Positions 11,370-63,967 of a stretch of DNA of 64,000 nucleotides are shown in pieces. The stretch covers positions 747,501 to 811,500 of the forward strand of contig JACCIC010000228.1 of assembly GCA_018907035.1 (NCBI GenBank). Reading direction: 5' to 3'. A model generated the notes under the pieces. That model saw only the letters and a list, made by a program, of their open reading frames with translations. It was not told the DNA's origin and made no database searches. The DNA is from Sycobia sp. Sy_11 (Eukaryota; Arthropoda; Insecta; Hymenoptera; Epichrysomallidae). A program made the translations under genes and the position numbers. The first letter of the stretch is position 1. The number at the start of each line of letters is the position of its first letter.

Positions 11370-11546
11370 GGAAACTCTAGCCCCACGAACCTTGCATTTA
11401 AGAGATGGATTGAATAGACTATTTTGTTTAGTTCCATATGAAGTAATTACTCCTGATATTTGGGATCACGTAATGCCCTACTGGATGGAAGCCATTACTA
11501 ATGATGTTACGATATATGAACTTGAAGAATTGAAAGTAATTTTATG
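11370..11546 (+). CDS. unc80: UNC80-like gene, exon (first in window)
   Basis: The exon lies between acceptor tatacag (ends 11369) and donor TG|GTAAAC (GT at 11547). It encodes LAPRTLHLRDGLNRLFCLVP, then YEVITPDIWDHVMPYWMEAI and a segment ending LEELKVIL. I recognise this as a conserved stretch of UNC80, a very large scaffold subunit of the NALCN sodium-leak channel complex at the neuronal plasma membrane. The exon ends two bases into a codon and joins the next exon (TG+T) as Cys, giving VILCKILDPD without a break. No stops are present and the composition is normal coding. The family call is from memory of the protein; a search would settle it. Confidence 0.75.
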
Positions 11547-11611
11547 GTAAACATCTTAAACTATGTATTTTAATTTATATCAAAATAGCTTATTATTATT
11601 ATTTTTATTAG

Positions 11612-11895
11612 TAAAATATTAGATCCGGATTTAAGCCCTCTTGGATTTGACACTAACCGAATGTATGCTTTTATTACAAAACGATTTATTGACACAAAGA
11701 TGAATATTCAAAGGCAAGCTTTAGGTTGGTTGCAGACATTGACGATGATAGGAATAACAGTACCTCTATCTTTACTATTTTCTATGTTTTTTGATGGAGT
11801 AACCGTCAGTGGGAATGCAATTGACGCCGTTGATCAAAATACCACGGTATTATTAAACACAAACAATGAAAACTACTATAAAGAGGCACAATTAT
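11612..11895 (+). CDS. unc80: UNC80-like gene, second exon
   Basis: After a 65-base intron (11547-11611) the frame continues as KILDPDLSPLGFDTNRMYAF, then FITKRFIDTKMNIQRQALGW and LQTLTMIGITVPLSLLFSMF, then FDGVTVSG and a variable polar tail. This segment is typical of the helical-repeat body of UNC80. The donor at 11896 is TTAT|GTACGT, leaving one base of a codon. No further exon of this gene was found until 63831, whose acceptor is in the complementary phase. Confidence 0.75.
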
Positions 11896-13054
11896 GTACG
11901 TATCTCTTATTTACACTTTGAAAATTCAGATATTGTTAATTAATATGAGAAGTTTTAGTAAGTATTTTATCATGCTTATTAAATAGAGTTTTTAATGAAG
12001 AATAAAATATTTTCAGAACTCATGATATTTAAGTTAGTGTAATAGAATTCGTAGTTCACTATACTGTACGATGGTATCCGGTTAAGCCACTTTAACCCTT
12101 AGATGCTTACTCCGCCACCAAGTTGGTTCTAATATACAGCATTTCTTGTTCGAAGATTTGGGACCTCTTCTACTATCTGGATCAATTTGCCAGAGATTCT
12201 AGGATTTCTTGTGATTCGAATAGTATTTTTAGATTCGGATGGTTTGAAAAGAAAATATTTTTTTTTCATCATTGTTCGAAATTGTTGCCACAGACCATCA
12301 GCAATTATTTGTAATGTTCATAAAATACCATTTCAATAACAAGTATACTTTACAAAAATTTGTTTTCAATTCATAGTTTTTAAATAATCTATGGAATCTT
12401 TTTCAACTATGTTGTCTGCGAAGTGGAAAGAAAGCCATTAATGATTCACCTCATGTGTAATTGCTTTTATTAAAATTTATATTATTCTTTCCTTTTAAAG
12501 GTAAACAGCTTTATTACTGTAACTTAAAGTAAAACAAAACAACTATAGTACAAAATACGTCAAACCTGAACATTTCCTTACTGACATAAATAAGAATTAT
12601 GGCAGAGAGATTTTTAAAGAAGTTCTATGAGAGAAATAGCGCCATACCATCAAGCACTCTGCTAGTATTTTTATTAACCAGTAGGATTTCCTTATGCTCT
12701 AATTCCACAGAATAAAGGTAAAATAGAGTAGCTTGTTATTAATGCTGAATGCAGATGTTTAGGAGAACGGTATATAGCTTGTCATTGTCTTATAGCTATA
12801 TATGTAACTAACATTTCTACCAATGTTACATTCGGATGTTAAATTCTAAGTTAAATGTGATATTTTGGATATGAGCTTATTAATAGCATGCCTTCGTGAT
12901 CGAAAACAAGCAACATGAAATCGAACAAACGAAGTTAATTAGATATATGAGTCATATACCTAATATTCTTTTAGAAGATATTAAGAGGTCTTATTATTAA
13001 AATTGTTCAAGAAATTCTTATCTAAATTAACCCATCAGATAAAGTAGATTAATA
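11896..13054. other. Intron start, no recognised feature
   Basis: AT-rich intronic sequence. Short open frames here (such as 12123-12314) have no family resemblance. Confidence 0.45.
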
Positions 13055-13386
13055 ATAATAAATTAATAAATATTTCTATTGAACTTACAGTTCAATTAAA
13101 TAAATTAAAATTAAATTTAAATCTATGTCCTTACTTAAAATCACCCCCGTAGACTAGTCTGAAATAAAAATATATTAGCTGAATAAACAAATAGATATTT
13201 AAAAAATAGAATTTGTCAACATAAATATAGTTTATGCAGTCCACATATTACTTCTGGTTTAAAAGAACATTGTTTGAAGTTTTTACATTCTTTTGATTTT
13301 GTGAATGTGAATATTTTGGAATGAACGAAAAATATTCACATTTCCAGAAATCGTAATAATGTGAATTTAATGTTACAGTCAAGTAT
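13055..13386 (+). mobile_element. Penelope-like copy C, rearranged fragment
   Basis: A reverse-oriented pseudo-LTR end (aattaataaatatt ... tcacccccgtagactag ... tattagctga, 13061-13183) is joined to the end of a plus-strand GIY-YIG coding region (13230-13386: HITSGLKEHCLKFLHSFDFV, then a stop). The middle of the element is missing. The arrangement matches copy F (inverted 5' pseudo-LTR before GIY-YIG). Confidence 0.65.
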
Positions 13387-13800
13387 CGCAGCGGCCGGTA
13401 GCCCTCATCACCCCACGGCGTGTCCGTCGAGGGTCACGACGGGTATCGGTAAGGGCGTTGATCCTACTGCTGCTGGAGGCCGAGATGGAGGATGAGATTG
13501 ACCAGGAGAGGACCTAGGGTAAGGCATGAGCTCGTCCACGGCAGCGATCGTCGCGAAAGACGCTCGTCATTCGGAGGTAAGTTAACCGCACACTCTCCAG
13601 AGAGAGAAGACGACGCGGGCGTGATCCCAAGCCGAAGAAAACCTCAAAGCGCTCGCGCACGCCGTCGCACCTTGTCTCCAGTCCCCTTACCTCCCCGCTC
13701 CACGAGCTGCGCACGGTCGTCTGCTGAGGGATGACGAGGTTATGCCATCTAACCAATGCCACCGCATGGACTGGAGTACCGAGACGCACTCACGCGAAAA
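13387..13800. other. GC-rich island of unknown origin
   Basis: Composition changes sharply from AT-rich to GC-rich exactly where copy C ends. Open frames on both strands (13492-13734 +, 13514-13789 -) look like composition-driven shadows. It could be a 5' untranslated region of a retroelement that continues into the A-rich stretch. Confidence 0.35.
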
Positions 13801-15397
13801 AAAAGTATAATAAAGATAAAGTGAAGTTAATGACTAAATTTAAGTTAAGAGTTAAGTGAAATTAAAACAAAAACAAAAAAAAAACAATGAACAAGAAGAA
13901 GAAGAAAAAAATTATGAACAGTTGATAAGGCTAAAAAATAAATAGAGAACTTAAACAATAATAGTTAAAATTTTAAATCTAGACAGCGAAAAAAAGTGAA
14001 ATAAAAGCAATGGTAAATAATTGTGCCGGTATAATAATCGAAATTAACCAATCTAAAAAGGTACGAATAAACTAATAATACTAATAATGAAGTTAGTTAA
14101 TCTGAAAAAACCATTATAAATAATGTGAATAATATTAGAAATACAAACAGTGAATCTAAAATAATTATAATAAGTGATAATGAATTATTCCAAATGCAAG
14201 CATATAATCTAGTGAATCAACTCTGAATAATTACAAAAATATAATAATTGAAAATAATCAATCTAAAGCAGTATCAATAAATAATAAAAATACTGCTGAT
14301 ACAAATAATGAATCTGGAAAAGACAGCTATAAATAAGTTTGAAAACATAGATCAAAATGATAAATCTGAAATAATAGTAATAATAATAATAATAGTACGA
14401 AACTATACTAATAGTAGCAGTAGTACTATACTAAACGTACTAATAATAGTAAGAAAAAAATACTAAACCTATTCCAAATAAAAACAATAAATCCAGAAAA
14501 GCGAGTTCATATAATAAAAAAAATTATAATTAAGAAGAAACGATCTAAGACATTGGCAGTCAACAATAGAAACAGTTTGTAAATAAAAATAATGAAATTG
14601 GAAATGAAGCGATGAATAGTTTGGCAAATATAACACAGGAAAATAATGACTGTCAACAGATAAACAAACATAATGAACATATTATAAATATATCTGAAAT
14701 GTACAACTGTGAATACTTTGAAAATGTTATGAAAGAGGAAGAATAAAATAATACAAACATCAAAAAATAATAATAATAATAATAATAATGCTAATGCTAA
14801 GAATAACAGGTAAGGAAATTGGTGCAACATTTTACATAATATTAAAGATACTGGGGACATGGTAGAAATCATAAACTAAAAAGCTGAAAGGAAATAATAG
14901 TTCAGTTAAGAGAAATTTAGAAAGGTGTACAGTGAAAATAAAAATTGAAATTGAAGTGACTGCAGAAGTTCTGCAGAAAGAAAAGTGACAGTAAAAATGG
15001 TAAGAATAGAGAAATTTCAGATAACGTCGGGATGTGGGATCCAGATATTGAAGACATATCGTTAAGGAAGAAACGAAACAAATTTAATTAAACAACAACA
15101 TTGATCCAGTAAAGCTGAAGCTCCTAAAAATGTTATAGTTATCAGACCTCGTAGGTCAGTACAACTATCAGACAGTCTTCAAGTTTAGTGATTATCGAAG
15201 ATGATGCGGATAAACAATTATGATTGTATATATCCTTTAAATCTAAATTGCAGTATAAAGTTGTGAGGTTCAATAATAGACTAATAAATAATAAGTTCTT
15301 CTACAAGCGTATCATGTAAATGTTGTATGTAAAAGTTCTTAGGAAAAACAAAACAAAACAAAAAAAATTTTTTTAGTATGTAAGATCGTATGATCGT
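13801..15397 (+). other. A-rich region with decayed asparagine-rich reading frames
   Basis: About 1.6 kb of strongly A-rich plus strand with (AAT)n tracts (e.g. 14768-14790). Short pieces read as polar low-complexity protein, for example WDPDIEDISLRKKRNKFN near 15036 and SVIIEDDADKQL-like sequence near 15190. It may be the decayed first ORF of a retroelement. No family is identified. It abuts the truncated left end of the DNA transposon at 15398. Confidence 0.35.
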
Positions 15398-16734
15398 ATG
15401 AAAAAACTTTTTATGAGCGAATTTGGTGCCGTAATGTAGACGTTGCAGCTACGTAGTGTAAACATGACTCGCGTATTCAAAAATTTCTGTGAATGAAATT
15501 GGTATGATAATTGAGACGTTGCAACTACGTAGCAAACGTTCATTTGCTGGCTACGTAGCTGAAACGTCTGCATAAAACATCTGTAAGGTTATATATAAAA
15601 TTATTATATGATTCAAATTTTTGTTTTAAGAAAAAATAATTTACACATTCTTTTAATCACATTTATTTTATTTGTATTATTCTATTCGTATAACAATAAA
15701 AGTATACTCGAACGCGAACATTTATATTTTATCAATCATAATATTTTATATTATTTTCAGGTACGTCCTCTTACACATATTATATAAAACAAAATACTAT
15801 AATATTATCGCAGATATAAAATTAATTAATTGATATATTTATACATGTACAACTAGAACGATTCCTCTGAAAGAATTCTGAACAATATTCTTACTAGCAT
15901 TTTTATGTTTATAGAAAATCCTGTAATATTACTATATAAGAATCATTTTACAATCCTCATAATATCGTTCCCATTTCTACAGTATTGCTATGGAAAACTC
16001 TTAAAAAATCCTATAGAAATTTCTTATAAATAAGTTTCAATTCGGAGTACCAGTATGAAATATTTTGCACATAATAGTATAATATATAGACAATTGTACA
16101 AAGTAAATAAGAATATCGTATGAACGTTTGTACTGATTTTAAGACCTATAAATTTGCAGAGCAAGTGTCCAAGATGGGAAAAGTAGCGAAATTATCTTTA
16201 TAAGCTAACTTCATTAATTTTGCAGTTATCCGCTTTATATTCCAAGAATTAAGATTATCATTATTAACATTATTATAATCACTAATGATATTTATTCCTA
16301 TAATACTCGATGCACATGGACAGTCATATAAATCACCAAGGATTTTCAGTTTTCGACCTATCACAGAAATTTCTTCAACGTTACATTGAATTATATTTAG
16401 AACTTTCATAATATATTTTCTATCTATTAAGATACAGTTATTTTTATCATCAATATAATTTTATTCCAAAAGAATTGAAGTTAGTGCTTTTGTATTATAT
16501 TCCGATCTTGAAGAACGGAAGTAAGACTACCTTCAATAGAATTTTATGCACATAACAATATTTTTTAATAAATTCTATAAAATATTATATAAAACAAAAT
16601 ATTATAATAGTGTATCTCATATCAAATATAAAATTAGCAAATCTCTATATTTTAATTATGCATATATGATATCAAATAAAAATATAACATTGGCGAGGTT
16701 TAATGTTTTTTTGCTACAGAATAAGGTAGGGAAA
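15398..16734 (-). repeat. Left arm of the long inverted repeat
   Basis: Reverse complement of 29181-30524 with few differences. It includes a copy of the transposase C-terminal reading frame (16146-16409, minus: MKVLNIIQCNVEEISVIG..., one or two residues different from the right copy). Outer similarity stops abruptly at 15398; inner similarity stops at GGTAGGGAAA (16725-16734). Confidence 0.9.
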
Positions 16735-17790
16735 AGTATTAATTCCTACTATAAAAAGTATATACAACTGTACTTTTTGTACATATCAATAATCGCTTTC
16801 CCCATCTGCAGCATCGGAGTTCATATCATCCATACTCTTTTTAATTTTTTTACGACTTTCACAAGAAACTCTTTGGATGTGAAGTTTACTCTTCTCTTTT
16901 CTATAAAAAAAATTTTTAATAGTGATGATAAATTAAATTTTGAAAATATTTTATTTAAATATACAAAATATTTTCAATATTTAGTTTCATATAGACTATA
17001 ATGTCATACTTTGTGATTTTCTATAAAAAACAATCATTATTCAATATTAAATACATACTTATCATTTTTTCCCACAGTTCTCTGAATCCTTCTGGTCGCT
17101 TGTTTTAACCAATCTTTAGCCGCGGACTCCGCAAAATGTGAAGTAAAATTCGGAAACTTAGTTACGGCAACATTTTATATTATTTCCCAAACTCTATGCT
17201 TTTGGAAACTGTTCTTGTTCCGTACACCACAGAAACTATAATGAACTGCTACTTTATCGGTAAAAATTTCATGTAGCATTTTTCGTACACCTTTGTGACC
17301 ATCTCTGCCACCAATTGATCGAAGAAATCGTCCCTCCATCAGAAAAATAAAATTATTGAAATACCTTTCAAACACTTTAATAATAATGGAATATAATTGT
17401 TAAAAAATACCACTTTATAATAGGTATCGTTATTTTTCAAATCTTCGTCGAATTTCGTAAATTTAACAACATCGCTAAAGGGAAACATTTTCCTTATCTG
17501 CCATAAATCGTGAGGTTCTTCAGAGGAGGGCAACAACAGGCTGGCTTCTTCATATTTTACTTTAAGCTCTGCCTGATTCCATAAGATTTCGTGATTCATT
17601 TCTGTAAAACAATTATATTATAAAAATATAAAAACCACGTTACACATAAACTAAGAAAAAATACCTTACCAAGATTATACAATTATTTTTCAACTGTAGA
17701 CATATTTTGTATTTCATTTAATGGTATTATCTTAGATTTCTCAAAATTTGAATTTTTACTCCCGAGATCTGTAAATATATGCGAATATTA

Positions 17791-17821
17791 TTAGGAGTGT
17801 GAATAAGTCTTTCCCGTTTTT
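17791..17821. repeat. Mariner left terminal inverted repeat
   Basis: TTAGGAGTGTGAATAAGTCT and following TTCCCG match the inverse of 19046-19075 with a few mismatches in the outer 8 bases. Confidence 0.9.
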
Positions 17822-17962
17822 TGTAAGAGATGGCGCCACCAATACTGTGCGAGTATTCAATGTTTACATATGTCATAATCAAAGCTTATTCATATGTCAA
17901 CAATTCCATACTAACACATTAGTTAAAATTTTTTCGCATCATAAATTTTTGATATCGTGAAA

Positions 17963-19000
17963 ATGTCGAAATTTGAGCCGAGTCGACGTCATTTGCGGGA
18001 AGTTTCACTTTATTGGTTCAATTTGAAGAAATCTGCTGCGGAGACGCATCGATTGCTTCAGGAGGCTTATGGAGAAGGTTGTGTCGATGATTCAAGTGTT
18101 CGCGGATGGTTTCGACGCTTCAAAAGCGGTGATTTCGACGTGGAAGACAAGGAGCGCTCCGGGCGGCCGCAAATCTTTGAAGATCGAGAATTGGCGACTT
18201 TGGTTGATGAAGATTCTTGTCAAACGCAAGAAGAACTTGCTGAAGCATTGGGAGTTGACCGAACAACCATTTCCAAGCGTTTGAAAACCATGGGAATGAT
18301 CCAAAAGCAAGGAAATTGGGTGCCGTACGAACTGAAGCTGAGAGACGTCGAACGGCGTTTCTTCACTTGCGAACAGCTGCTTCGGCGACATAAAAGAAAG
18401 GGTTTTCTGCATCGTATCGTGACTGGCGATGAAAAGTGGATACGTTACGATAATCCGAAGCGAAGAAAATCATGGGGACTACCCGGCCATGCATCATCAT
18501 CGACGGCCAAGCCAAATATTCATGGCGCCAAGCTCATGCTCTGTATATGGTGGGACCAGCTAGGTGTGGTTTACTATGAGCTTCTGAAACCGAATGAAAG
18601 GATCACAGGCGAGGTCTATCGACGACAATTGATGCGTTTGATCCGCTCACTGCGAGAAAAACGGGCACAATACTCCGACAGGCACGACAAAGTTATTTTG
18701 CAACATGACAATGCTCGCCCACATGTTGCACCGCCGGTGAAAACATACTTCGAAACGCTCAAATGGGAAGTTCTACCCCACCCGCCGTATAGTCCAGACG
18801 TTGCTCCGTCTGATTACCATCTTTTCAAATCGATGACGCATGGCCTGGCTGACCAGCACTTCCATTCCTACGAGGAAGCCAAAAAATGGGTGGATGACTG
18901 GATAGAGGCCAAACCGGTCGAATTTTTTCGCAACGGGATTCGTATGTTGCCAGAAAGTTGGGAAAAAGTTGTAGCTAGCGATGGCCAATACTTTCAATAA
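17963..19000 (+). CDS. Mariner transposase, intact, DD34D
   Basis: 345 codons from the ATG at 17963 (MSKFEPSRRHL), the same length as Mos1 transposase; the GTG two codons earlier is not needed. It catalyses cut-and-paste transposition at TA. Seen: an N-terminal double helix-turn-helix region (residues about 1-110), the linker motif WVPYEL, then the catalytic triad: Asp in IVTGDEKW (about residue 156), Asp in LQHDNARPH (about 249), Asp in APSDYHLF, with exactly 34 residues between the second and third. The C-terminus WEKVVASDGQYF is also family-typical. No stop or frameshift. Regulation is not visible beyond the terminal repeats. Activity is inferred. Confidence 0.93.
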   Translation: MSKFEPSRRHLREVSLYWFNLKKSAAETHRLLQEAYGEGCVDDSSVRGWFRRFKSGDFDVEDKERSGRPQIFEDRELATLVDEDSCQTQEELAEALGVDRTTISKRLKTMGMIQKQGNWVPYELKLRDVERRFFTCEQLLRRHKRKGFLHRIVTGDEKWIRYDNPKRRKSWGLPGHASSSTAKPNIHGAKLMLCIWWDQLGVVYYELLKPNERITGEVYRRQLMRLIRSLREKRAQYSDRHDKVILQHDNARPHVAPPVKTYFETLKWEVLPHPPYSPDVAPSDYHLFKSMTHGLADQHFHSYEEAKKWVDDWIEAKPVEFFRNGIRMLPESWEKVVASDGQYFQ

Positions 19001-19045
19001 TTCATTTGTAACCATTTTTTCATAATAAAGGCTCAAAATTTGAAA

Positions 19046-19075
19046 AAAACGGGAAAGACTTATTCACATACCTGA
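19046..19075. repeat. Mariner right terminal inverted repeat
   Basis: Ends ...CACATACCTGA just before TA; inverse of the left end. Confidence 0.9.
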
Positions 19076-19077
19076 TA

Positions 19078-19628
19078 TAAAATATAAAAATATTAAAATT
19101 TTATGTCTCTATATGATTATGCTGATGTACTTATAATTTTTATATTTTAATTATGATTCAAGGAATTTTAATCACTTGCTTCGTGCATACATTAATAATC
19201 CAAAATAACGTAAATTAAAACACCAAAAACTAATTTAGAAATTTAAAATTTTTTATAATTCTCATAAGTTTTTAACACAAATTATTTTCTTTAAAATGGA
19301 TTTTGTTATGAAATGCACTTGCAATATACGATATTTTTTCAAATAATTATTTTTTAAACGATTTAAAAGTTTTAAAAGTTTTTAATGTTTGTCTAAAATA
19401 TTTAAGCACAAACCTTCTTAGAATTCATATAACAATATTTTTGATTGCAAATAAGTATATTTAATAATCCTTTGATTAACTATTTTTTGAAGTATCTTAT
19501 AACTCCATTAGGTATTAAAAATAAATATTTAAACTCATGAAAAATATTTAAGAGCAAAATGAATCAGTTTTCGAAATCCCCCTGCCTTATACTACAGAAT
19601 AACTTATTTGGTTACCAGAGGTATGTAC
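19078..19628. other. Intron sequence of the DUF4806-type gene
   Basis: AT-rich, no coding signal. It lies between the mariner and the exon ending at 19629. Confidence 0.5.
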
Positions 19629-19780
19629 CTAATTGTTTCTTCTGTAACATAGCGAATGCATTCTTCGATTCTATTCCTGAAATAAATATCTTCATCTTTT
19701 GGATAGGATGATATACGATCCTCGAGGAGTTCTGCACATTTTTGCATCGCTAATGCATATGTTTCTGTGAAATAAAAATG

Positions 19781-19787
19781 GTGTGTG

Positions 19788-19801
<14 letters not shown>
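19781..19801. repeat. (GT)n on the 3' side of the R1-clade LINE
   Basis: About 10 GT units directly against the element's poly(A)/T tract. With the (TG)n at 24523-24594 it shows that the LINE lies inside one AC/GT microsatellite. Confidence 0.95.
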
Positions 19802-19818
<17 letters not shown>

Positions 19819-20011
19819 TTTTTTTTATTAGGCGTAGGCAGAGCAAGCTCTGCACTAGTGGCCTCTCGAAACCAGCATCCCGCCGGAACTATCCGGGAAT
19901 ATTACTTCGGCGGGGCTGTTAATTAGCCTATACGACTCATCTTCTTATGACACTATCCTACGTCCCCCATCCACACAGGTGATCAGGGGTTCGGTGTTCG
20001 TCCTCTGTATC

Positions 20012-22998
20012 TTAAAATAGGATCAGTTGGCCTGGTTCATCCTGGGCCATTCGCCTAGTTCTATCGGCATATCTAAGTTTGGTCATCACCTCTTTTGCGA
20101 AACTGGCTACTGCCTTCCAGTTTTCAGAAGATTCCAGCATTATTGATAGGATGCTCTCTGGTCTTATTGGCTTATTGATGATGTTCATCAAGTGCTCACG
20201 TTGTGTTCTAAAACGAGGGCAGCTCACCAATATATGCTCAGCATTCTGATGGGGCAGAGATCATTATTATCCAGGTGAAAGCGGTGGAAATAGGACCTAA
20301 AACAACCATGTCCAGTCAACAACTGAGTTAGGTGGAAATCTAATTCCCCGTGTTTCCTGTTGATCCATCTGTGTATGTCTGGGAGGATACGATAAGTCCA
20401 TCGGCCTTTGCTAGAATCGGTCCATCGTTTTTGCCATATTTCTATAGAACGATGACGTTCCACATTTTTAGCACCTTGTAGGGAATCCACTGCGGCCTTA
20501 CATATGTTATGCAGCCTAGCCAGTTCATCTGCAGCTAAATCGAAAGGAAGAATTCCGGCAAGTACCTCAGCTGCGTCGGTGGATACCGTCCTGTAACCAC
20601 TAATAATACGTATACAGGAGCGACGACGGGTCGCAATGGCCAACTCACAATACGATTTAATTCCGCATGCATGATGCCAGATTGGTGCTGCATACATGCT
20701 GACAGAATTAACAACATAAGCTAATAGTTTCCTCTGGGGTGGACGTGGGCCACCAATGTTAGGCATGAGCCGACACAAGGCAGCTGAAACTCGTTGCGCT
20801 TTTTCGCCAGATATCTTTAGATGTTCTTTGAAGTTTAACCTGGCATCAAGCTGGACACCCAAGTATCGTAAAGATGGCGCAGAACTAATGCGGCAGCTAC
20901 CAACTTTAAGAGTAATACTATCTACCTTCTTACGACTGCTGACAAGAACTACTTCTGTCTTGTGCTCCGCTAATTGTAGACCAGCCGTCTTAATCCATCT
21001 ACTGATGTTGCTGATTGCCTCATTGGCATTTTCAGTAAGTTCATCAAGGGTCTTAGCCGTCACTACTAGAGCGATATCGTCGGCGTACCCTACTGTTATT
21101 GAACCAGGCGGTTGTGGAATCCTCAACACGCCATCATACATAATATTCCACAATATAGGTCCCATAACTGAGCCCTGGGGGACTCCCGCAGTAACCCTAT
21201 GCAATACAGTGCCTTCATCCGTTCGGTATAATATTATCCTATTCTCAAAGTAGCTGGCCACGATATTCTGTAAATAACCAGGTACTCCGAACTCTTTAAG
21301 AGAACTCATAATAGAAGACCAGCGCGCTGAATTAAAGGCATTCTTGACATCTAGAGCGACAATGGCACAATACTGTTTAGTGCCACCTTTCCATCTCTTA
21401 CCACTGATTGCATTTCTTGCGGTACACACTACCAGTTTAATGGCATCGACTGTTGATTTTGATTTCCGAAATCCAAATTGGCGTGAGGATAAGCCGTGCA
21501 ATCCTTCAGTGAATGCTTCCAGTCGGCTACATATTATTTTTTCAAATATTTTACCTACCGTGTCGAGCATACACAATGGCCTGTATGATGAAGGATCATC
21601 AAGTGGCTTATTGCCCTTAGGTAACAGGACTAACCTTTGAGTTTTCCAGCAATCAGGAAAAATACCCTCAAGAAGACAAGCATTATATACTTTTAGAAAT
21701 ATAGCTGGATTCTTCTGAATCGCCAACTTAACTGCCGCATTAGGGATACCATCAGGGCCAGGGGCAGCATTGTCTCTAGTCTTAGCGTAAGCATTATGTA
21801 GCTCCATTTCTGTTATAGGAGGTATATCGTCCGAGTGTTGCGTGCGCAGTACAGTCCCATGAATGTCATTGGGAAAGAGAGCGGAAACAATCTTATCAAT
21901 CAATACCGTGCTAGTGGGTTGTATTGGTGCCCTACTCAATCGTGCCATGACTGTTTTGTATGGTCGTCCCCATAAGTCATTGTTGGCCTCTGCACACAGT
22001 TCAAGCCAGCATCGACGCTTGCTTGCCTTAATGGCCTTGACAAGCACTCTCTGTGCTTCTTTAAATAAACTATTAAACGTATCACGATGGGTGCGGGCTC
22101 TCTGGGCAAGTCTACGTGCGCGATGACATTGTTTGCGCAATTCTGCAATTTCATTTGTCCACCAGTAGACAGATTGACGATGTTTAAATCCGCTCTTAGT
22201 CCTAGTCATCGATGCATCACATGCTTCAGAGATATGCTTCATGAGTGCATTTGCCAGATGGCCTGGTGCACCATATTCTAAACGCTCTTCTAATATTATA
22301 GTGGCGAACACTTCACAGTCTAGCGATCTGATGTTCCATTTCCGTGTGGGCATCCACTCATTGCACTTGTTCTTTACTTTCTTCTCTGCAATCTCATACA
22401 AGATCGCTCTGTGATCACTGTGGGTGTAAAGGTCGCTTACTCTCCAATTAAGGATCCGCTGAATCAAGTCATCACTGGCGAATGTTACATCAATGACTGA
22501 TTGTTTATCACCCCTAATGAAAGTGGATTCAGATCCCTTATTAACCACGTGGAGTTAAAGAGAATTAAGGCCATCAAGCAGCATACTACCTCTGTTATTT
22601 GTTGAAGCGCTTCCCCAGGCTGTGGACCACGCGTTAAAATCGCCACCGATTAATAATGGTTTCTTGTCCATGGCTTCATCAACTAATTTAGCTACAAGGA
22701 TTTCAAACTGCTTGTCCGTCAAGCTTGGAGGAGCATATACACTAAAGACGTATATTTCTTGTATTTTAGCCCAGGATATCAATTCGCTCCGATGACTCGA
22801 CTGCTTTAGTACCTGCCTATTTTGACCAATCCAGAGGGCAGCTCTATTGCTTGTGTCACTTATCCAGCGCTGTGGTCTGACCCTGTCACAATATGGTTCG
22901 GAGATTACAGCAATATCTATTCTTAGCTCCTTTATTGTGTGTTTCAGCAGGTCATGAGCTGCTACGCAATGGTTGGTATTCAGTTGGAGTATTTTCAT
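20012..22998 (-). pseudogene. R1-clade LINE ORF2: endonuclease and reverse transcriptase, two breaks
   Basis: Begins MKILQLNTNHCVAAHDLL. The APE-type endonuclease shows SEPY, GGDFNAWSTAWGS and, after a single in-frame TAA near 22553, THSDHRAIL. The RT has AAPGPDGIPN (fingers), YRPLCMLDTVGKIFEKI, QFGFRKSKSTVDAI, VALDVKNAFNSARW (first catalytic Asp), AGVPQGSVMGPILWN and VGYADDIALVV (YADD). The C-terminal region is intact to about 20240, where one base lost or gained near CTGCCCCATC shifts the frame; the other frame gives VSCPRFRTQREHL to the end at 20012. It would nick the AC-repeat target and copy its RNA there. The ATG overlaps the ORF1 stop, implying coupled translation. Confidence 0.9.
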
Positions 22999-24521: not shown

Positions 24522-24522
<1 letters not shown>

Positions 24523-51439: not shown

Positions 51440-51454
51440 CCGGCAGTCTAAAGG
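51440..51454. repeat. piggyBac right terminal repeat
   Basis: CCGGCAGTCTAAAGG followed by TTAA. Confidence 0.92.
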
Positions 51455-51458
51455 TTAA

Positions 51459-52010: not shown

Positions 52011-52019
52011 GTAATTATT

Positions 52020-52369: not shown

Positions 52370-52371
<2 letters not shown>
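52020..52371 (+). pseudogene. Polinton-like or related large-element remnant, plus strand
   Basis: Pieces read MKLLIKKELEDTLISPVDRE (52045) and YWDDLNGLVERLRSLIAE, then SAGNTNHINEIHSNIEKLRE (52250-52360), just before a (TA)n tract. I associate this with a protein that precedes a protein-primed polymerase in large ant elements; the identity is uncertain. Confidence 0.4.

Positions 52372-52417
<46 letters not shown>
52372..52417. repeat. (TA)n between convergent remnants
   Basis: About 23 units between the plus-strand frame ending here and the minus-strand frame that starts after it. Confidence 0.9.
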
Positions 52418-52424
<7 letters not shown>

Positions 52425-54130: not shown

Positions 54131-54136
54131 CTCACT

Positions 54137-54665
54137 CCCATGACGTCAAAGTTAAGCGATTTATACTAATTGATGAGTCAACCTTGGTCAGTATAACAAG
54201 AGGCACATGCGTTCGCCTAAAAATAGAACGTCTTTATGTTAGTTTTCCATATCACACTCTTTCCCATACGCAATGGGAGCAATTATATACATGACCGAAA
54301 TTGAGAGGATTCAAGGTATAGGACTGGCAAAGAAAAATAACTCGCATTCAGTATAGAGCAAGGGGGCACGTATTTCCTATAACTATAGACATAACAAGCA
54401 AGTTTAAGCGGATTATACTAATTGATTTGGGTCCACCTCAGCTGTACAAGTGTTCGCCTTTACTCGAACCGTCTCTCACGCTTCTTCCGAGAACTGAATC
54501 TCATACAAAATAGAACACTTACATTCACATTTTCTATAGTCACTCCATGTTCTAATCAGAATGATATTATACGAATCCAAAATTGAGAAGATGCAAGGCG
54601 TGAGGGCGATAAAGAAAAATAAGTCGTTTTCCGTATACAATATAGTGGCATGTAATTGCTATGAT
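54137..54665. repeat. Diverged tandem repeat, unit about 250-280 bases
   Basis: Copy 1 has GCGATTTATACTAATTGAT (54156) and TTGAGAGGATTCAAGG (54301); copy 2 has GCGGATTATACTAATTGAT (54408) and TTGAGAAGATGCAAGG (54583). GTTCGCCT and AAAGAAAAATAA also recur. Order is kept. Confidence 0.7.
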
Positions 54666-56002
54666 AATTCATAATCATCAACAGAATTTTTCTTTTCTCA
54701 CCAACACATCAAATTTTCATCATGACGATACATCGCTCTGCTCAAATATAATGAAAAGAAACAATGAAAAGAATTGATCCCCATCTCCGTCTTTGTTTAT
54801 CTATTATACTATGGCAAGAGTGGCACCGTTTTCTGGGGGGAGGAAGTTCTCTATATATGCTTATAGTCATTCTACTGAATCTAAACTGTACTCCCGTCTA
54901 AAATGCACTATGTTCCCCTGCACGACCTAGATGGGAGCTCAGCACACTTTTTTAAGTGGCGATGTGTTCTAGAATGCCTATGTGCTAGAATGCCTATAGC
55001 CTAACTATAAACAGCCTAACTAAAAATAACAAACGTTTACTTTAATTGCGTGTTTTTACAATATAAGTATAACTTTATTCTTTTTTATGTGTATCAATGA
55101 AATATTTATTTAAATTAACTAAATATATTTTAGTAATTCCTTTTATAAAATATTTCATAGAACCAACTAATCTTTTTTTCTTCAATGTATTATACACCCT
55201 TTGTATGAAGTCACATTTTCCTTTAATAAACTGATTTTTTCATAGTCCCTATACTAATAATTTTATTTTCCGTAATATTTCAGAAAGCAAGAGATTTTTA
55301 TGAATGCAAATGCATTTGTAAATCATTGCTGTTTTACAATAGTTTAGACTGGAATTGCTTGTGAAAAAAATTCCTAGTAAAAGCCAACACCATGAAATAA
55401 ATAGGTAATTATTTAGATTCACATTTGGGACATTTGTATAATGTTAACGTGCCAATTCATTATTATCTTCCCCAAATCGTTGAGAAAAATAATGAAATAT
55501 ATTGCGATATATGTGAATTAAATCAAGGATCGTATTTTTAAATGCTAAAACTACGCCGTAAAATAATATTGATTTCGGCTATATTATATAAAAACTTTAA
55601 TGTAGAATCATAATTGTATTGACAGTCACGTACTTACATATTGATAGCCACTGGTATAATTACCCTATGTATTTCTTAAATATTTCGCTACAATAATATA
55701 AATTTCAAACTTGTTTCAAATAATAGTTTTGACAATGTCTAGGTAATTTTTATGAATTTCATGCCTAACAGTTTATGTTAATTAAAATTAGAAATATTAC
55801 AAAAATTAACACTTTATTAACGATTTTTTGTAGTCAACTTTCAATCCCTTGTACACGCAACAATATGCATTTAAAATTGTAAATGCATTTTACGTGAACA
55901 TGTCATATAAAATTACTTCGATATTTTAGTATATCCTGGTCATAAAATTTCGACACTTTTCTCGGGAAACGATTTTTTAAATATTTATTACTATTACGCT
56001 GC

Positions 56003-56007
<5 letters not shown>
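54666..56007. other. No recognised feature
   Basis: AT-rich intronic sequence. I see no coding or structural signal. Confidence 0.4.

Positions 56008-56052
<45 letters not shown>
56008..56052. repeat. (TA)n left of a mariner
   Basis: About 22 units. With 56897-56941 it forms one microsatellite split by the mariner. Confidence 0.9.
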
Positions 56053-56053
<1 letters not shown>

Positions 56054-56895
56054 GTTGGTCATAAGTACGTAGCCTACAAATGAAAACACCTAAATTTTTG
56101 AAAAAAATAAAATTTACTTTTAATGTAGTCTTCTTTTAGTTGAATACATTTAGAAAACAGGTGTTCCAATTTATTAACCCTGTTGAAAAAAATTTTTTCT
56201 CTTCGTCTGTAAAATAGACCTCCGAATGGAGGCCATTATGTCGTTATAGGAGTGCAAACTTCCCCGCGAGCGAATTTGTTAGGTGCAGAAACAAAGTAAC
56301 GTTGTACGGTGCCAAATCTGGAGAATACTGTGGATGGGGCAGCATTTGGTAGCGTAATTCAACGAATTTAGCCGTAGCGTGTGCAAAAGTGTGAGCCGGT
56401 ACATTATTGTGGTGGAAAAGCACATTCTGTTTAAACAGATAGTCAAATCGGCTCAATAGTTCTGCGAAGTATTGTCCTTTTTGCTCTTCTCGAGATAGTC
56501 AACAAAAATCAGACCTTGAGAATTCCAGAAAATATTGGCCATCAACTTTCAGGTCGACGGGATCATCTTCGACTTCTACAGAGCCGGTTCATCGGGTAAG
56601 GTCTACTATTTTGACTGCTCCTTGGTTTCTCGAGTGTAGTAGTGATGTTTCGTCAACGGTCAAATAACAACGCAAAAATTCTTTTGCATTGTGATTAGAG
56701 TGCTCCACACGCTATAAACTGTTGTCTGGAATCAGAAAACGCGGCACCCACCTAGCTCACACATGATTTTACACTCTCTCAAAAATAAACTATAACTACG
56801 ATCCGTCTAAAATTTCGATACTAGATTGTAGTACATTTCTAGTGCGACAGTCACACCATCTGGCGGTGAAGCTAGGTACTTGTCAATTGACCCAC

Positions 56896-56896
<1 letters not shown>
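56053..56896 (-). mobile_element. Decayed mariner inserted in (TA)n
   Basis: About 844 bases with diverged terminal inverted repeats (CGTTGGTCATAAGTACGTAG left; CGTGGGTCAATTGACAAGTA, CCTAGC right, reversed). (TA)n abuts both ends, as expected for a TA-target element landing in a TA microsatellite. Internally deleted compared with a 1.3 kb mariner. Confidence 0.75.
56180..56720 (-). pseudogene. Mariner transposase remnant
   Basis: The minus strand reads FHHNNVPAHTFAHATAKFVE (56420-56361) and MLPHPQYSPDLAPYNVTLFL. The second catalytic position is HNN rather than HDN, and the third motif is APYN rather than APCD or APSD, so both catalytic aspartates shown here are lost. Other frames hold pieces further right (to about 56720). 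Confidence 0.7.

Positions 56897-56941
<45 letters not shown>
56897..56941. repeat. (TA)n right of the mariner
   Basis: About 22 units. Confidence 0.9.
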
Positions 56942-56943
<2 letters not shown>

Positions 56944-56969
56944 TTATGTATATACATTTATACACTTAT

Positions 56970-57584
56970 TGTCGTATTTACACATAAAAAAACTGTCGAT
57001 AGTATATAATTCGTTTTGACTGGAAATAGCGTAGAGCACGGATGTGTATCACGTGTATGACTTTGAAAGGACAAATTTCTTTATATGCCTCCTTGTAAGT
57101 TCTCTGCAGGCATCAATGAGAATTCTAGTTATAAAACCCAGATGCACCGCATATGCATTGTAAAGTAATTGGGATGGTTTTAGCGCGGTGCTTCAGGGTG
57201 TTCTTAAGAAGGTCATAAAGTGGGCGGGTCTAATCCATAAGCTGACCATCTAAGCGAGAAATTTTCAACGTTTATTTTCTGATATTTGAAGCTTATATGG
57301 TTGTAAACGAAGCGTGGGAAGACCCTCACAGGGGGCGTCTAGAGGTTCTACGGCGCTTCCTTGCAGTTTGAAAGGCAGTTGCAACTACGTCTTCGAGACG
57401 AACGGTCAGCGTTATCAGATATACTAATCATTTGACAGCGTGTATTACTTTAGAATTATAGAAACTAGTTGTTCAAACTTTTAATAAATTGTTTCTCTTA
57501 CACTTTCCACGTGAAATTGTTATGTCATTGATTTATCATACTCCAAATCCTTTATAAGTTAGTTAATCTTTCTTAAATATAACA
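56970..57584 (+). repeat. BEL/Pao 5' LTR
   Basis: Begins TGTCGTATTTACAC, ends AAATATAACA. The transcription start is not obvious. Followed by the primer-binding site. Confidence 0.95.
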
Positions 57585-57657
57585 TCTGGCGACCGTGACA
57601 GGACGTGGAGTGAACAGTGTTCAAGTGATTTGAAAGTGACGAGATTGTATAGAAACA

Positions 57658-58690
57658 TGGATAAGTGTAAAAGAAAACGCGCAACAGCACGCACAGCGTT
57701 CTAAGGCGTTGCGTGCATTTGAATCATTTTGTATTGGTACTATCAGCAACGTATCTGATTTAAATGTGGCTTACAAATTCATGACAGAAAAAATGGAAGT
57801 GCTGTCAAACATCTCAGAGCAGTTCATCGATATCATGTATGAGGACATGAACACTACGGACGATGAAATCGCGATTGAGCTTGATGAAATCGATGATTAC
57901 AAGAAGAGATTTTTAGCAGCCACTGAAGAGTATCAGCAATTGAAAACGAAAGAAAAACCTAATGAAAGTATAGGTAACTCTGCATCAGAGAAACAGGTCA
58001 CGAGAACGTATAAATTGCCGAAAATTGAATTGGCGCGTTTTAGTGGTAATGTACGGGACTGGTTCCAATTCTGGAGCCTCTTTAAAAAAATTGATGAGGA
58101 TACTACCATTGCGAATGAAGACAAATTCCAGTATCTCGTTCAAGCGATGGAGCCACACTCAAGAGCTGCTGATTTAGTAAAGGGTTATCCACTAACTGTT
58201 GATAACTATGAAAAAGTTATAAAGGCACTGAAGTGTAGGTTCGGCCGTAAACAACTCCAAATAGAAGTTTTTGTTCGAGAATTGCTCAAGCTTGTGTTGG
58301 AAAGAGCAATGAAACCGGCAAAAGAAATTAATCTAGCAAGTTTATTCGATAAGCTAGAATCATACCTTCGATCACTTGAGTCGCTCGGGGTAACTACCGA
58401 TACGTGCGCGGCGACGCTCTTTCCGCTTGTGGAGTCAGCGTTACCAGAAGAATTGCTTCGTGCGTGGTAAAGAAATTATGCGGCGCAAAATGCAAGCAAC
58501 CACACGGATGAAGAAGATGCAGAAGATTAAAAAAAGAAGCTTAAGCAGTTGATAAAATTTCTACGTTCCGAAGTCGAAGGCGAGATGAGCATAGCGATTG
58601 CCGCAAAGGGTTTTCAAATGAAAAAAAACAGCTCGACGGAAGAAGGGAGAAGCCACGTGCTGATATAAAAGCTGTGCCAAGTGCAAGGGA
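57658..58690 (+). pseudogene. BEL/Pao gag (DUF1759-like capsid region)
   Basis: An ATG at 57658 gives MDK, then a one-base shift opens the frame VKENAQQHAQRSKALRAF. The main frame to 58470 includes a coiled-coil-like N-terminal region, then LPKIELARFSGNVRDWFQFW and KFQYLVQAMEPHSRAADLV (DUF1759-type core), ending LPEELLRAW and a stop. Further pieces continue to about 58690. The capsid would form particles. Confidence 0.85.
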
Positions 58691-58729
58691 TTTGTTGGTC
58701 TCTAGAACACGCGATCCGACGAATACAAA

Positions 58730-59230
58730 GGATATGGCCATCTCAAGAATGCATGAACCATATTGTATTTTTTGCGACCAAAAAGGCCATGAGAGTGCAG
58801 ATTGTAAGAAGGCTTGAGGTATGAGTTCCGAAGAGACAACCAGCGCGCAAGAGAAAAAAATGCCTGTTACAAATGCCTGAAAATTGGTCATGGCGCAAGG
58901 GTATGTCGTTCAGCTACAAAATGTGTAAAATGCGGAAGATGGCATGTAGAATTGATGTGTCGAGAGAAAGAAAATAAACAGGAAGCTGTAAAAAGTACCC
59001 GCGATGTAGTAGAAAATAACGTAGCTACAGTCGCAAGTGCGAGCAACAATACTAAAGTGTTTATGCAAACGTTGATGGTGAGATTCATCGAAGGATGTAA
59101 TGAGATTGTTGCACGTGCTGTTATAGACTCTGGCTCTCAGCGCTTGTACATCACTAAGAAGGTTGTCGAACAGATGCAGTATCATGCCATTGCAGGGCAG
59201 AAGATGAGACATTTACTTTTCGGCGGGTAG
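58730..59230 (+). pseudogene. BEL/Pao zinc knuckles and protease
   Basis: CIFCDQKGHESADC-like (near 58770), CYKCLKIGHGARVC (58865) and CVKCGRWHVELMC (58925) are zinc knuckles; the protease follows with AVIDSGSQRLYITKKV (DSG active site, about 59120). The frame ends with a stop at 59230. Confidence 0.85.
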
Positions 59231-59254
59231 CGATCTGAAATAGTAAATCATAAA

Positions 59255-60965
59255 ATGTACGTAGTGCGAATTGGCAGTTTAAATCGCGATTATCATGCCA
59301 AGTTAATACTCCATGAACAAAGAGTTATCTGCGATAGCATACCTGCAATTACGTACGGCCCGTGGATTAACGAGCTAAGGAAAATGAACATTGTATTGAG
59401 TAATTTAAACACTGACAGTGATTCTGTCGATATATTTATAGGCGCCGATCATGCAGGAAAGTTGCTAACGGGTCATAGACATGTATTAAACGGTGGATTA
59501 GTAGCGTTTGAGATATTGTTAGGATGGACACTTATGGGCGAGGTCCCAAACGAAGAAAAGCAGGACAGCGCAGCGATGACAACTATAGGAATGGAATCAC
59601 GGAATATGAGTATACAAGAATTATGGTCGTTCGGCTCTATAGGCATTAGAGATCCTATAGAAGTACAAAGAAAAAGTGATGAAAATGCAGAAATAAAACG
59701 TATATTCTTGTCGACGGTGGTTCGCAGTCCTAATGGCAGATACCAGGTACAATTACCATGGCTTGAATGCCATCCAGTATTGCCAGAAAATAAGAATATT
59801 GCCCGTAAATGACTGGAAACATCGATAAAACGTCTACAAGCAACGGGGAAATACGCGGCATGCCATATTTCAGGAGTGGCTTGCGGACGGTATTATAGAA
59901 GCAGTACCTGAGGAGGAGAAGGCGATCGGCATGGTTCACTACCTGCCGCACAGGCCAGTTTATAAGGAGAACTCCACGACCACGATCAGACCTGTGTTCG
60001 ATGCATCGGCCAAGCAACCAGACTGCCCCTCCCTTAATGAATGCTTGCACAAGGATCCTAATGAGTTGGAGTGTATAACATCTGTTCTACAAAAATTTCG
60101 TGAGGGTAAGATAGGCGTAATTTCGTATATTAGAAAGGCATTTTTGCAAATCGAGATACACCCGACTGACCGCGATGCACTTCGATTTCTGTGGTATAAT
60201 GAACAAAACGATTTGATTATATATAGACATTGTAGAGTAGTTTTTGGTGTATGTAGTAGTCCGTTTATTCTAAGTACGGTTATTGAGCTTCATTTAAATA
60301 ATTGTATTAACTCAACGATTGAAAATAAAAGTGCAGTAAAATGTAAACGGGAAAACATTATTAAATTAAAAAATAGTTTCTATGTTTACAACTGTGTTAC
60401 TAGCCTAAATAGCGAACAAGGACTGTTAGATTTTAAAAGAGATGCACAGTCCGTTATGAATTTAACCGCCTTTGACCTCCGGGGGTGGGAAAACAGCATT
60501 GACGATCACTCAAAAAATGATAGCATTGCATGCGTACTGGGTATCAATTGGGAAAAAACTAGCGACACTTTATTACTTAGTCTAGATAAACTTAAAGGGG
60601 ACGAACTTAATATTATAACAAAAAGGAAAATTTTGTCTTTTACACATCGTATTTTCGACCCGCTTGGTTTTATATGTCCGGCAACTATACAACCTAGAAT
60701 TTCATTACAACAGGCGTGGGCATAACGGTTGAAGTGGGATGATCCAGTTAATGAAGCAATAGCAACCCAATTTTCTAAATGGGTTAGTAAGTTAAAGGTT
60801 TTAGAAAGCGTACGAATACCCAGATGTACAATCGGTGATATAAAGGACATTGAATCTGTAACTCTGCATACATTTTGTGATGCGAGTAAAATAGCTTATG
60901 CGGCCGTGACATTGTACGTGGAAATACCGTTGAAGTTAATTTCTTACAAGGCAAATTGCGTATAA
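59255..60965 (+). pseudogene. BEL/Pao reverse transcriptase and RNase H start
   Basis: IGADHAGKLLTG (59440), RPVYKENSTTTIRPVFDASA (59955), then IRKAFLQIEI where the preceding catalytic Asp position is Tyr in this copy (60125), VVFGVCSSPF (60240) and FYVYNCVTS where the catalytic Asp of YVDN is also Tyr (60380). WENSIDDHSKN and FDPLGFICPA follow. An in-frame TAA at 60725 interrupts QAWA-RLKWDDP. RNase H begins HTFCDASKIAYAAVTLY (60870). Two lost catalytic residues make the RT dead. Confidence 0.85.
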
Positions 60966-61690
60966 CACCTGTAAAGGAGGATAAAAATACGCGCATAAGC
61001 ATACCACGATTGGAACTATTAGCTGCAACGATAGGCGCGCGTTTAAAGGATGCGGTTTTAAAGGCGCTCGCGTATAAAGATTTAAATATTTATCTTTGGA
61101 CTGATTCATCAACAGTGTTATCGTGGATACGCAGAGTTGATAATTGGAGTGTTTTCGTTTCGAATAGAGTAAGAGAGATAAGAAAGCTCACAGATCCTAA
61201 TCGATGGAGGCACGTGAGCGGTGAACTTAACCCTGCAGATTTACCGTCGAGAGGCTGCACAGCCCGTCAGTTACTAGCATCGTATTGGTGGAATGGTCCT
61301 GAATGGCTACGCAATCCTCCCGAAAAATGGCCCTCTTATTGTACGTATGACCAAGACGAAATTAATAAAGAATTGAAAAGGGTAGCAAATTTGACGTCGG
61401 GGTTTATTTTGTTGACTTCTACTTCGGAAGGAGAAAACGTTCAGTGGTATAGCCGTTATTCTAATTTTGATAAAATTGGACGTATTTTAGCTTGGATAAA
61501 GAGATTTATAAATAATATAAAAAATAAAGGCGCGAAAATTATATCTAATTATTTGCAAGTAAATGAAATTGAAAACGCCGAAAAAAGCATAATACGAATT
61601 TGTCAAGTGAAATGCTCAATAGATGAAAGTAACAAAGATATAAAGCATTTGCAGCCTTTTTTCGATGATGACGGAATTTTTTCGTATTAA
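60956..61690 (+). pseudogene. BEL/Pao RNase H end and linker
   Basis: After a frameshift near 60955: RISIPRLELLAATIGARLKD, IYLWTDSSTVLSWI (RNase H), and WRHVSGELNPADLPSRGC, typical of BEL/Pao. Linker to integrase follows. Confidence 0.85.
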
Positions 61691-63027
61691 AACGAAATTG
61701 TTTTTTAGAGACGATACATATAATTTTCGATGTCCGATACTTTTACCGAAGAAACATATACTAGTAAACCTAATTATACAGAATGAGCATAACAGAATTA
61801 ACCACGCCGGCATAATAATCGTATTACATCTACTTAGAGAAAAGTATTGGATATTAGGTGGTAGGAAAACCATCGGATCTGTCATAAAACGGTGTGCAAG
61901 ATGTCGAAGATACAACGCGCAGCCTCTTAGTACGACATCGGCACCATTGTCTCTCAATCGTATAAGGAATGTGGCAGTTTTTGAAATCGTCGGTGTTGAT
62001 TTTGCTGGGCCTGTACATCTGAGGGGAGGTCAAAGCGTGGATTAGCCTCTTTACGTGTGCGGTCTATAGGGCTGTGCATCTTGAATTAGTTAACACAATA
62101 TCCGTAGCTTCCTTTCTAATGGCTTTACGACGATTCATTGTACGCAGAGGGCGACCTCATACCATTTACAGTGACAACGACACAAATTTTACCGGTCTAA
62201 ATAATGCCTTGACGAGAATTGATTTTGAAAAATTACAGGACACGGTTGCAAGACAAAAAATAGAATGGTTGTTAAAACCGCCTTCGGCACCATGGTGGGA
62301 AGGATTTTGGGAACGGTTGATAGACATATTAAAACGATTATTAAGACGAACGCTTAAAAGGGCGAGTTTAACCTACGAAGAAATGCTCACGACTCTTACG
62401 GATTGCGAAGCAATAATCAATGCACGACCGATTACATTTGTAAGTGAAAATAAAAATGAGCTAATTCCATTGTCTCCGGCTATGTTTTTACAATACGTAG
62501 TTGAAAGCGGTGTAGTGGACTTAGATCATATAGAAAAATTAGATTTCGGAAAACGATACTCTTATCGACAGGAAATTAAGGACAAGCTAAGACGTCGTTT
62601 TCGAACTGAATATATGGATGCATTAGCTTGTCAAAAATCTAAAAAATGTAATGTAACAACAATCCAGACTGGAGATTTAGTTCTATTAGGAAATGATAAT
62701 TCCAAACGTATAGATTGGCCCTTAGCACGTGTAAAGAAAATGATCAATGGAAAGGATGGCAACATACGAGTCCTACAGTTAGTAACTGATAGGGGAGAGA
62801 TATTAAGACCAATACAGAGAGTGTACCCGTTAGAAGTAAGTCTTCGAAATTCTGATGATACTGAAATAGATTGTATACTTAAGAATAAATATGTAAATCA
62901 AAATAAGAAGGAATGCACAACACAGGCAAGTGTCCCATATCCAATTGATATAAAACAGGACCATGTAATCACGCATAGTGGACGTACATCCCGGCGTCCT
63001 GATAGACTAATGTATTCTTGTAAGTAA
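61665..63027 (+). pseudogene. BEL/Pao integrase
   Basis: A zinc region (HNRINHAGIIIVLHLLREKY and CARCRRYN, 61790-61915), VGVDFAGP (first catalytic Asp, 61993), IYSDNDTNF (second, 62165), WWEGFWERLI (Glu, 62295), then a C-terminal domain with WPLARVKKMINGKDG. A frameshift near 61680 and a break near 62045 separate it. The core triad is still present, unlike the RT catalytic residues. Confidence 0.85.
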
Positions 63028-63171
63028 TATGTCAAAAATCTCATATAATAGCGCTATATATATATATATAATATTTATATTTATTATTGTACTGTACTGA
63101 ATCGAATAAAGATATTTTATTCTCTTGTAGCTTAGCCACATAATATAAACACATTATATTTCCGGGGAGGA

Positions 63172-63786
63172 TGTCGTATTTACACATAAAAAAAATTGTC
63201 GATAGTATATAATTCGTTTTGACTGGAAATAGCGTAGAGCACGGATGTGTATCACGTGTATGACTTTGAAAGGACAAATTTCTTTATATGCCTCCTTGTA
63301 AGTTCTCTGCAGGCATCAATGAGAATTCTAGTTATAAAACCCAGATGCACCGCATATGCATTGTAAAGTAATTGGGATGGTTTTAGCGCGGTCTTTCAGT
63401 GTGTTCTTAAGAAGGCCATAAAGTGGGCGGGTCTAATCCATAAGCTGACTATCCAAGCGAGAAATTTTTAACGTTTATTTTCTGATATTTGAAGCTTATA
63501 TGGTTGTAAAAGGAGCGTGGGAAGAATCTCAAAGGGGCGTCTAGAGCTTCTACGGTGCTTCCTTGCAGTTTGAAAGGCAGTTGCAACTACGTCTTCGAGA
63601 CGAACGGTCAGCGTTATCAGATATACTAATCATTTGACAGCGTGTATTACTTTAGAATTATAGAAACTAGTTGTTCAAACTTTTAAAAAATTATTTCTCT
63701 TACTCTTTCCACGTTAAATTGTTATGTCATTGATTTATCATACTCCAAATCCTTTGTAAGTTAGTTAATCTTTTTTAAATATAACA
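63172..63786 (+). repeat. BEL/Pao 3' LTR
   Basis: Same length as the 5' LTR. It ends 44 bases before the UNC80-like exon at 63831, so LTR signals lie in the acceptor region of the host gene. Confidence 0.95.
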
Positions 63787-63830
63787 CGTATATATGTATG
63801 CGAATAATAATTAAATTTTTGTATTTCAAG

Positions 63831-63967
63831 TTAATGAAAATACCTTAGATGAATGCACACAAATATTTGATCATATTATACAATCATCTGAGCATACGAA
63901 AGCTACAAATAATGAAGAACTTAGTATATCTTGTTGTATTCTAATGTTAGATATTCTACTTAAACAG
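63831..63967 (+). CDS. unc80: UNC80-like gene, third exon (in window)
   Basis: Between acceptor GTATTTCAAG (ends 63830) and donor CAG|GTAACT (63968). The 137-base exon (2 + 45 codons) joins the one-base overhang of the exon ending at 11895 to make Phe, then reads NENTLDECTQIFDHIIQSSE, then HTKATNNEELSISCCILMLD and ILLKQ. No stop; phase and strand agree with the two exons at 11.4-11.9 kb. The ILMLDILLKQ end fits my memory of UNC80, but identity is less certain than for the first two exons. Confidence 0.65.

What the first reader, a model, noticed from the sequence alone, without database searches (positions are those of the whole stretch)
11370..63967. A 52 kb intron of an UNC80-like gene made almost wholly of transposons
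Seen: exons 11370-11546, 11612-11895 and 63831-63967 share strand and phase (TG|T = Cys; T|TT = Phe) and have GT/AG borders. Known: the first two read like UNC80, a NALCN-channel subunit. Inference: 51.9 kb of nested elements is one intron in a neuronal gene that must still be transcribed through it.
Basis: partly seen in the sequence, partly recalled or inferred. Interest (0 to 1): 0.8.

Follow-up and report, generated by a model that had tools for sequence, protein, structure and literature searches.

The report
Transposon-swollen 52-kb intron in UNC79
The stretch is a real 51.9-kb intron, about half or more of it jumping-gene remains, in an insect (probably a wasp, bee or ant relative) gene for the nerve-channel subunit UNC79, not UNC80; it is one of many bloated introns that make this single gene about two thirds of a megabase long or longer.

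Summary
In detail: exons 11370-11546, 11612-11895 and 63831-63967 have GT/AG borders and join in phase to 199 open codons. The gene name is wrong: the product is UNC79; UNC80_N matches lie on another contig. Sixteen aligned orthologues show no missing block at either junction, so 11896-63830 (51,935 nt) is one intron. Classified transposons fill about 50-60% of it (53-63% with three unclassified repeats); the rest is unassigned, much of it untested. The preceding intron is longer, about 67.9 kb. UNC79 exons lie on four contigs, 668 kb between outermost exons within contigs and about 0.84-1.19 Mb if the contigs abut. Oddest detail: a 6.8-kb sense BEL/Pao element ends 44 nt before the acceptor of exon 63831, where mammalian introns are depleted of full-length LTR elements (PMC3088655, passages). 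LTR elements lean to sense orientation (11:2), but weakly and not in a small second sample. Transcription and splicing are inferred; no RNA was seen. Verdict: real, a large example of a known kind.

The parts
11370..11546 (+). UNC79 exon (residues 589-646 of the Polistes protein P0003), acceptor acag|GG, donor ATG|gtaaac
11547..11611 (+). 65-nt intron, GT/AG
11612..11895 (+). UNC79 exon, donor TTAT|gtacgt
11896..63830 (+). 51,935-nt intron, transposon-rich
63831..63967 (+). UNC79 exon ending at residue 784 (P0003 numbering); the next exon match starts at residue 785 on contig C351
13051..13385 (+). fragment related to the GIY-YIG (Penelope-like, name recalled) element
15398..30557 (.). inverted-repeat unit: arms 15398-16734 and 29181-30524, 97.8% alike; inner frames match DUF1258 and DUF4218 below the curated cut-offs; probably a large DNA transposon, exact ends not settled
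17784..19098 (+). mariner with an open 345-aa transposase frame (17963-18997), about 98% identical to two copies in other UNC79 introns
20227..24362 (-). LINE in three frames (endonuclease and reverse transcriptase matched in two, the third without a Pfam match), antisense to the gene
31841..33163 (+). Penelope-like element (name recalled) with GIY-YIG domain
34768..35394 (-). inverted copy of the same repeat
38847..43062 (+). decayed gypsy-type element (RT and integrase pieces) followed by pieces of a Monjiviricetes-type fusion glycoprotein
43156..44151 (+). Penelope-like fragment
47080..48027 (+). gypsy pol fragment
49980..50618 (-). transposase remnant (DDE_Tnp_1_7, zf-Tnp_2; piggyBac type, recalled)
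52327..53085 (-). 253-aa open frame, no Pfam match, one anonymous 342-aa relative; nature unknown
56970..63786 (+). BEL/Pao LTR element, sense to the gene: LTRs 56970-57584 and 63172-63786 (96.3%), coding region split into several frames; ends 44 nt before exon 63831

Best explanation
11896-63830 is a single spliceosomal intron of the insect UNC79 gene (subunit of the NALCN sodium-leak channel complex; function recalled). It grew by successive, partly nested insertions of transposable elements. RNA polymerase II is inferred to transcribe through it, and the donor at 11896 is inferred to be spliced to the acceptor at 63830. That acceptor survives in the 44 nt left between the BEL/Pao insertion and the exon. 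Shown: gene identity, exon order, splice borders, continuity of the protein across the junction, the elements, and similar size of neighbouring introns. Inferred: transcription, splicing, and that the growth is tolerated rather than useful.
For: Open joined frame and GT/AG borders. UNC-79 by Pfam and PDB sequence. 293 homologues at E<=1e-5; the 120 listed all carry PF14776 and cover 99-100% of the query; contiguous across both junctions in 16 aligned. Three matches only, all here. Exons up- and downstream in the right order. LTR pair, near-matching duplication (CTTAT/CGTAT) and retained acceptor. mariner copies about 98% alike in three UNC79 introns. No Rfam family reached its gathering score and no tRNA gene was called in the window.
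Against: No RNA data. 37-47% of the intron is outside the interval list, much of it untested, and one 253-aa frame of unknown nature could be a nested gene. The exon 2/3 junction lies in a variable linker, so an optional exon of a few residues is not excluded; one listed orthologue not in the alignment (P0049) needed 28 gap columns. The match of exon 3 to solved UNC-79 is not significant by itself. A scan for strict recursive splice sites over six introns found none (0 of 7 plus-strand and 0 of 4 minus-strand motif hits passed the pyrimidine criterion), so how so long an intron is handled is open.
Confidence: 0.92

Rival explanations
1. Assembly error: unrelated repeat-rich sequence was joined between two UNC79 exons, or the intron length is inflated.
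For: The gene is broken over four contigs, so the assembly does struggle here.
Against: No N in the window. Exons on both sides are in order on one strand of one contig. LTR pair with near-matching duplication; exons matched once. Neighbouring introns are equally large.
Confidence: 0.04
2. The locus is a dead or truncated UNC79 copy, free to fill with transposons.
For: The joined piece is at most 58% identical to any listed relative, and several stretches of the protein were not located in the genome.
Against: No stop or frameshift in 199 codons; no second copy found; exon matches run in order over residues 74-2622.
Confidence: 0.02
3. The intron is kept because it acts, for example as a flamenco-like trap making antisense piRNAs against LTR elements.
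For: Gypsy with envelope-type glycoprotein pieces and a BEL element lie here.
Against: A trap should hold elements antisense to its transcript (recalled), but 11 of 13 LTR loci on the C144 stretch are sense.
Confidence: 0.02

Closest known systems
UNC79 (protein unc-79 homolog) of Hymenoptera
   Same: Protein contiguous over the whole 199-residue query; PF14776
   Different: Only 51-58% identical to the 58 hymenopteran proteins listed; gene far larger than in at least one relative (Microctonus: 2806 aa, longest contig 77,006)
Transposon-expanded long introns of animals, and giant Drosophila Y-linked genes (recalled)
   Same: Coding gene kept, introns swollen by repeats
   Different: Here dispersed, nested transposons rather than satellite arrays; sex linkage unknown
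BEL/Pao and gypsy elements with class III (chuvirus-type) glycoproteins
   Same: Elements in this and adjacent introns carry the expected domains
   Different: The glycoprotein sits beside gypsy-type, not BEL, copies here. PMC10084718 (passages) saw no clear gypsy capture; PMC13172572 (passages) reports type III fusion glycoproteins in gypsy, so the kind is known

Membership tests
UNC79 | match to PF14776 above the curated cut-off | tested here: met
   81.8 bits against a cut-off of 27, profile 471-526
UNC79 | rest of the long protein encoded in order around it | tested here: met
   exon matches in order over residues 74-2622 on C144, C351, C228, C186. Not located, in rough P0003 numbering: 1-73, 860-945, 1226-1417, 1500-2105, 2422-2451 and 2623-2770
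UNC79 | part of the NALCN complex | not testable with these tools
   function recalled from the family
UNC80 | similarity to UNC80 | tested here: not met
   no UNC80 hit in Pfam or PDB at E up to 1; three UNC80_N matches on C49
Spliceosomal GT/AG intron | GT/AG borders, phase kept, protein continuous | tested here: met
Spliceosomal GT/AG intron | junction reads | not testable with these tools
   no RNA data held
BEL/Pao element (56970-63786) | LTR pair with TG..CA ends and Pao-type domains | tested here: met
   LTRs 96.3%, TGTCG..TAACA; DUF1759, Peptidase_A17, DUF5641
BEL/Pao element (56970-63786) | 5-bp target-site duplication (length recalled) | tested here: inconclusive
   CTTAT/CGTAT, 4 of 5
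Recursively spliced intron | ratchet sites: pyrimidine tract + AG|GTRAG (recalled) | tested here: inconclusive
   none of strict form; looser sites not scored

The most novel reading that the evidence does not exclude
In this lineage UNC79 has become a gene of about one megabase whose transcription unit tolerates sense-oriented LTR elements, one ending only 44 nt before an acceptor and millions of generations old, which would imply an unusually strong suppression of LTR polyadenylation and splice signals in giant neuronal introns.
Probability: 0.12. Interest if true: 0.6.

Novelty: new member of a known kind. Interest (0 to 1): 0.36.

Why it matters
It corrects the gene and widens the picture from one long intron to a gene of two thirds of a megabase or more in a 621-Mb insect genome, a good natural case for asking how elongation, splicing and silencing cope with transposon-filled introns. 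The BEL insertion 44 nt before an acceptor is a concrete place to test whether insects avoid such insertions as mammals do.

Tried and rejected
UNC80 identity: rejected. UNC79 exons inside window 1-11370: none by tblastn and none by PDB search of 19 of the 68 ORFs. Nested RNA genes: none above threshold. Recursive splice sites: none of strict form. Frame at 52420-53085: one anonymous hit; a Polinton-like origin is a recalled resemblance only.

LTR orientation: first counted as 11 sense to 1 antisense (p 0.006). On checking, an antisense gypsy fragment upstream of the window (window coordinates -46585 to -46343) had to be added: 11:2, p 0.022; Fisher against other classes 0.07. That control took 11:11 for LINE, Penelope-like and mariner loci, which includes one inverted Penelope-like copy known from DNA repeats only; alone gives 11:10. 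On 20 kb of C228, where the gene is on the minus strand, one sense BEL-type and one antisense gypsy-type gag frame were named by eye. So the bias is not established. A chuvirus-type glycoprotein beside gypsy looked new against PMC10084718 but is a known kind by PMC13172572.

Own-genome searches for PF14776, for BEL LTR copies and for UNC79 residues 775-1075 did not complete, so the place of residues about 860-945 and the transposon copy numbers remain unknown.

Full report
Observation. The three claimed exons are as described: GT/AG borders, compatible phases and 199 open codons when joined. The intron between the second and third is 11896-63830, 51,935 nt. A search of the 621-Mb, 472-contig own genome with the joined protein gave three matches, all on C144 at these exons; the window is C144:747501-811500.

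Gene. Pfam gives UNC-79 (PF14776, E 4.9e-23). The PDB sequence search gives three UNC-79 sequences (E 1e-29 to 2.4e-29); the match rests on the first two exons. The end of the third exon aligns about 80 residues further on, not significantly by itself. A protein search returned 293 hits at E<=1e-5 among 581 candidates. The 120 listed all carry PF14776; the first 58 are Hymenoptera by my knowledge of the names, at 51-58% identity. The host is therefore probably a hymenopteran without a close relative in the list. UNC80_N matches three places on another contig, C49.

One intron, no missing exon. In an alignment of the query with 16 orthologues the protein runs through both junctions, with length differences confined to the variable linker at the end of the second exon. 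tblastn of ten insect UNC79 proteins found no convincing UNC79 match between 11895 and 63831; two weak ones (E 0.18 and 0.82) fall on the LINE at 23.9-24.2 kb.

The gene as a whole. Exon matches continue upstream on C144 (window coordinates, negative means before the window) at -142964, -118773, -116039, -77368 and -56662, and at C144:562380. Taken from the ends of the matches, the introns from -142785 on are about 24.0, 2.5, 38.5, 20.4 and 67.9 kb, then 65 nt, then 51.9 kb. The contig ends 13.4 kb after 63967. The next exon match starts at the next residue on C351, 19.2 kb from that contig's end, so that intron is about 32.6 kb or more if the two contigs are neighbours. More exons lie on C228 and C186. 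Spans between outermost exons within C144, C228 and C186 are 249, 58 and 361 kb, 668 kb together. If the contigs follow in order without overlap, residues 74-2622 span about 845 kb, or 1.19 Mb if all of C228 lies inside. Several stretches of the protein were not located (see membership test). For comparison, a 2806-aa UNC79 of Microctonus is listed with a longest contig of 77,006.

Content of the intron. Recognised: Penelope-like fragments with a GIY-YIG domain. A 15-kb inverted-repeat unit with 1.34-kb arms 97.8% alike matches DUF1258 and DUF4218 below their cut-offs and holds a mariner with an open frame and a LINE. Further: a decayed gypsy with a Monjiviricetes-type fusion glycoprotein, a gypsy pol fragment, a piggyBac-type remnant and a BEL/Pao element. 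My interval list sums to 27,308 nt (52.6%) counting pieces and 32,466 (62.5%) counting the inverted-repeat unit whole; 1,121 nt of either are repeats without a class. Forty open frames were sent to Pfam, so the remainder is partly untested. The mariner is 97.9-98.0% identical to copies in two other UNC79 introns, so part of the growth is recent and has reached several introns.

The acceptor. The BEL LTRs are 96.3% identical (21 mismatches and 2 gap openings in 616 columns). At about 3e-9 substitutions per site per generation (recalled) that is very roughly five to six million generations. The element is sense to the gene and ends 44 nt before exon 63831; a pyrimidine-rich stretch and the AG lie in those 44 nt. 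An AATAAA at 57483 in the 5' LTR is absent in the 3' LTR copy; whether it is the element's polyA signal is not shown. In mammals, full-length LTR elements are depleted within 2 kb (mouse) or 5 kb (human) of exons, and of those left within 2 kb in mouse only 30.1% are sense (PMC3088655, passages). This insertion is the oddest single detail, but one case proves nothing.

LTR orientation. On C144:597501-824892, 11 LTR loci are sense and 2 antisense (p 0.022, noticed after the fact; 0.07 against other element classes). Two gag frames on 20 kb of C228 split 1:1. I treat the bias as a lead only.

Mechanism and verdict. Most likely the intron is transcribed and removed like any other, and its size is tolerated rather than useful. 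It is a large, clean example of transposon-driven intron growth, notable for affecting a whole channel-complex gene.

Noticed in passing
window coordinates -140253 to -136692, -13971 to -8322, -5870 to -2067 (upstream of the window) and 38847-43062: Four gypsy-type copies, each with a chuvirus-type fusion glycoprotein downstream; the one glycoprotein query hit nowhere else in the 227 kb. A known kind (PMC13172572, passages), though PMC10084718 (passages) had seen no clear capture by gypsy.
   Followed up: partly
C144:597501-824892: LTR elements 11 sense to 2 antisense relative to UNC79; opposite to mammalian introns, small sample, not repeated on C228.
   Followed up: partly
17784-19098: mariner with an open transposase frame, about 98% identical to two copies in other introns of the same gene.
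   Followed up: yes
window coordinates -90914 to -90525 and -77902 to -77515 (upstream of the window): 390-nt direct repeat pair, 98.2% alike, flanking a gypsy element; the inner copy ends about 150 nt before the UNC79 exon at -77368. Not shown to be LTRs.
   Followed up: no
10162-10705: Fold-back pair, 224-nt arms 95% complementary, related to the Penelope-like repeats.
   Followed up: no
52327-53085: 253-aa frame without Pfam match; one anonymous relative.
   Followed up: partly
57483 and the same place in the 3' LTR: AATAAA present in the 5' LTR, absent in the 3' LTR that lies beside the exon.
   Followed up: no
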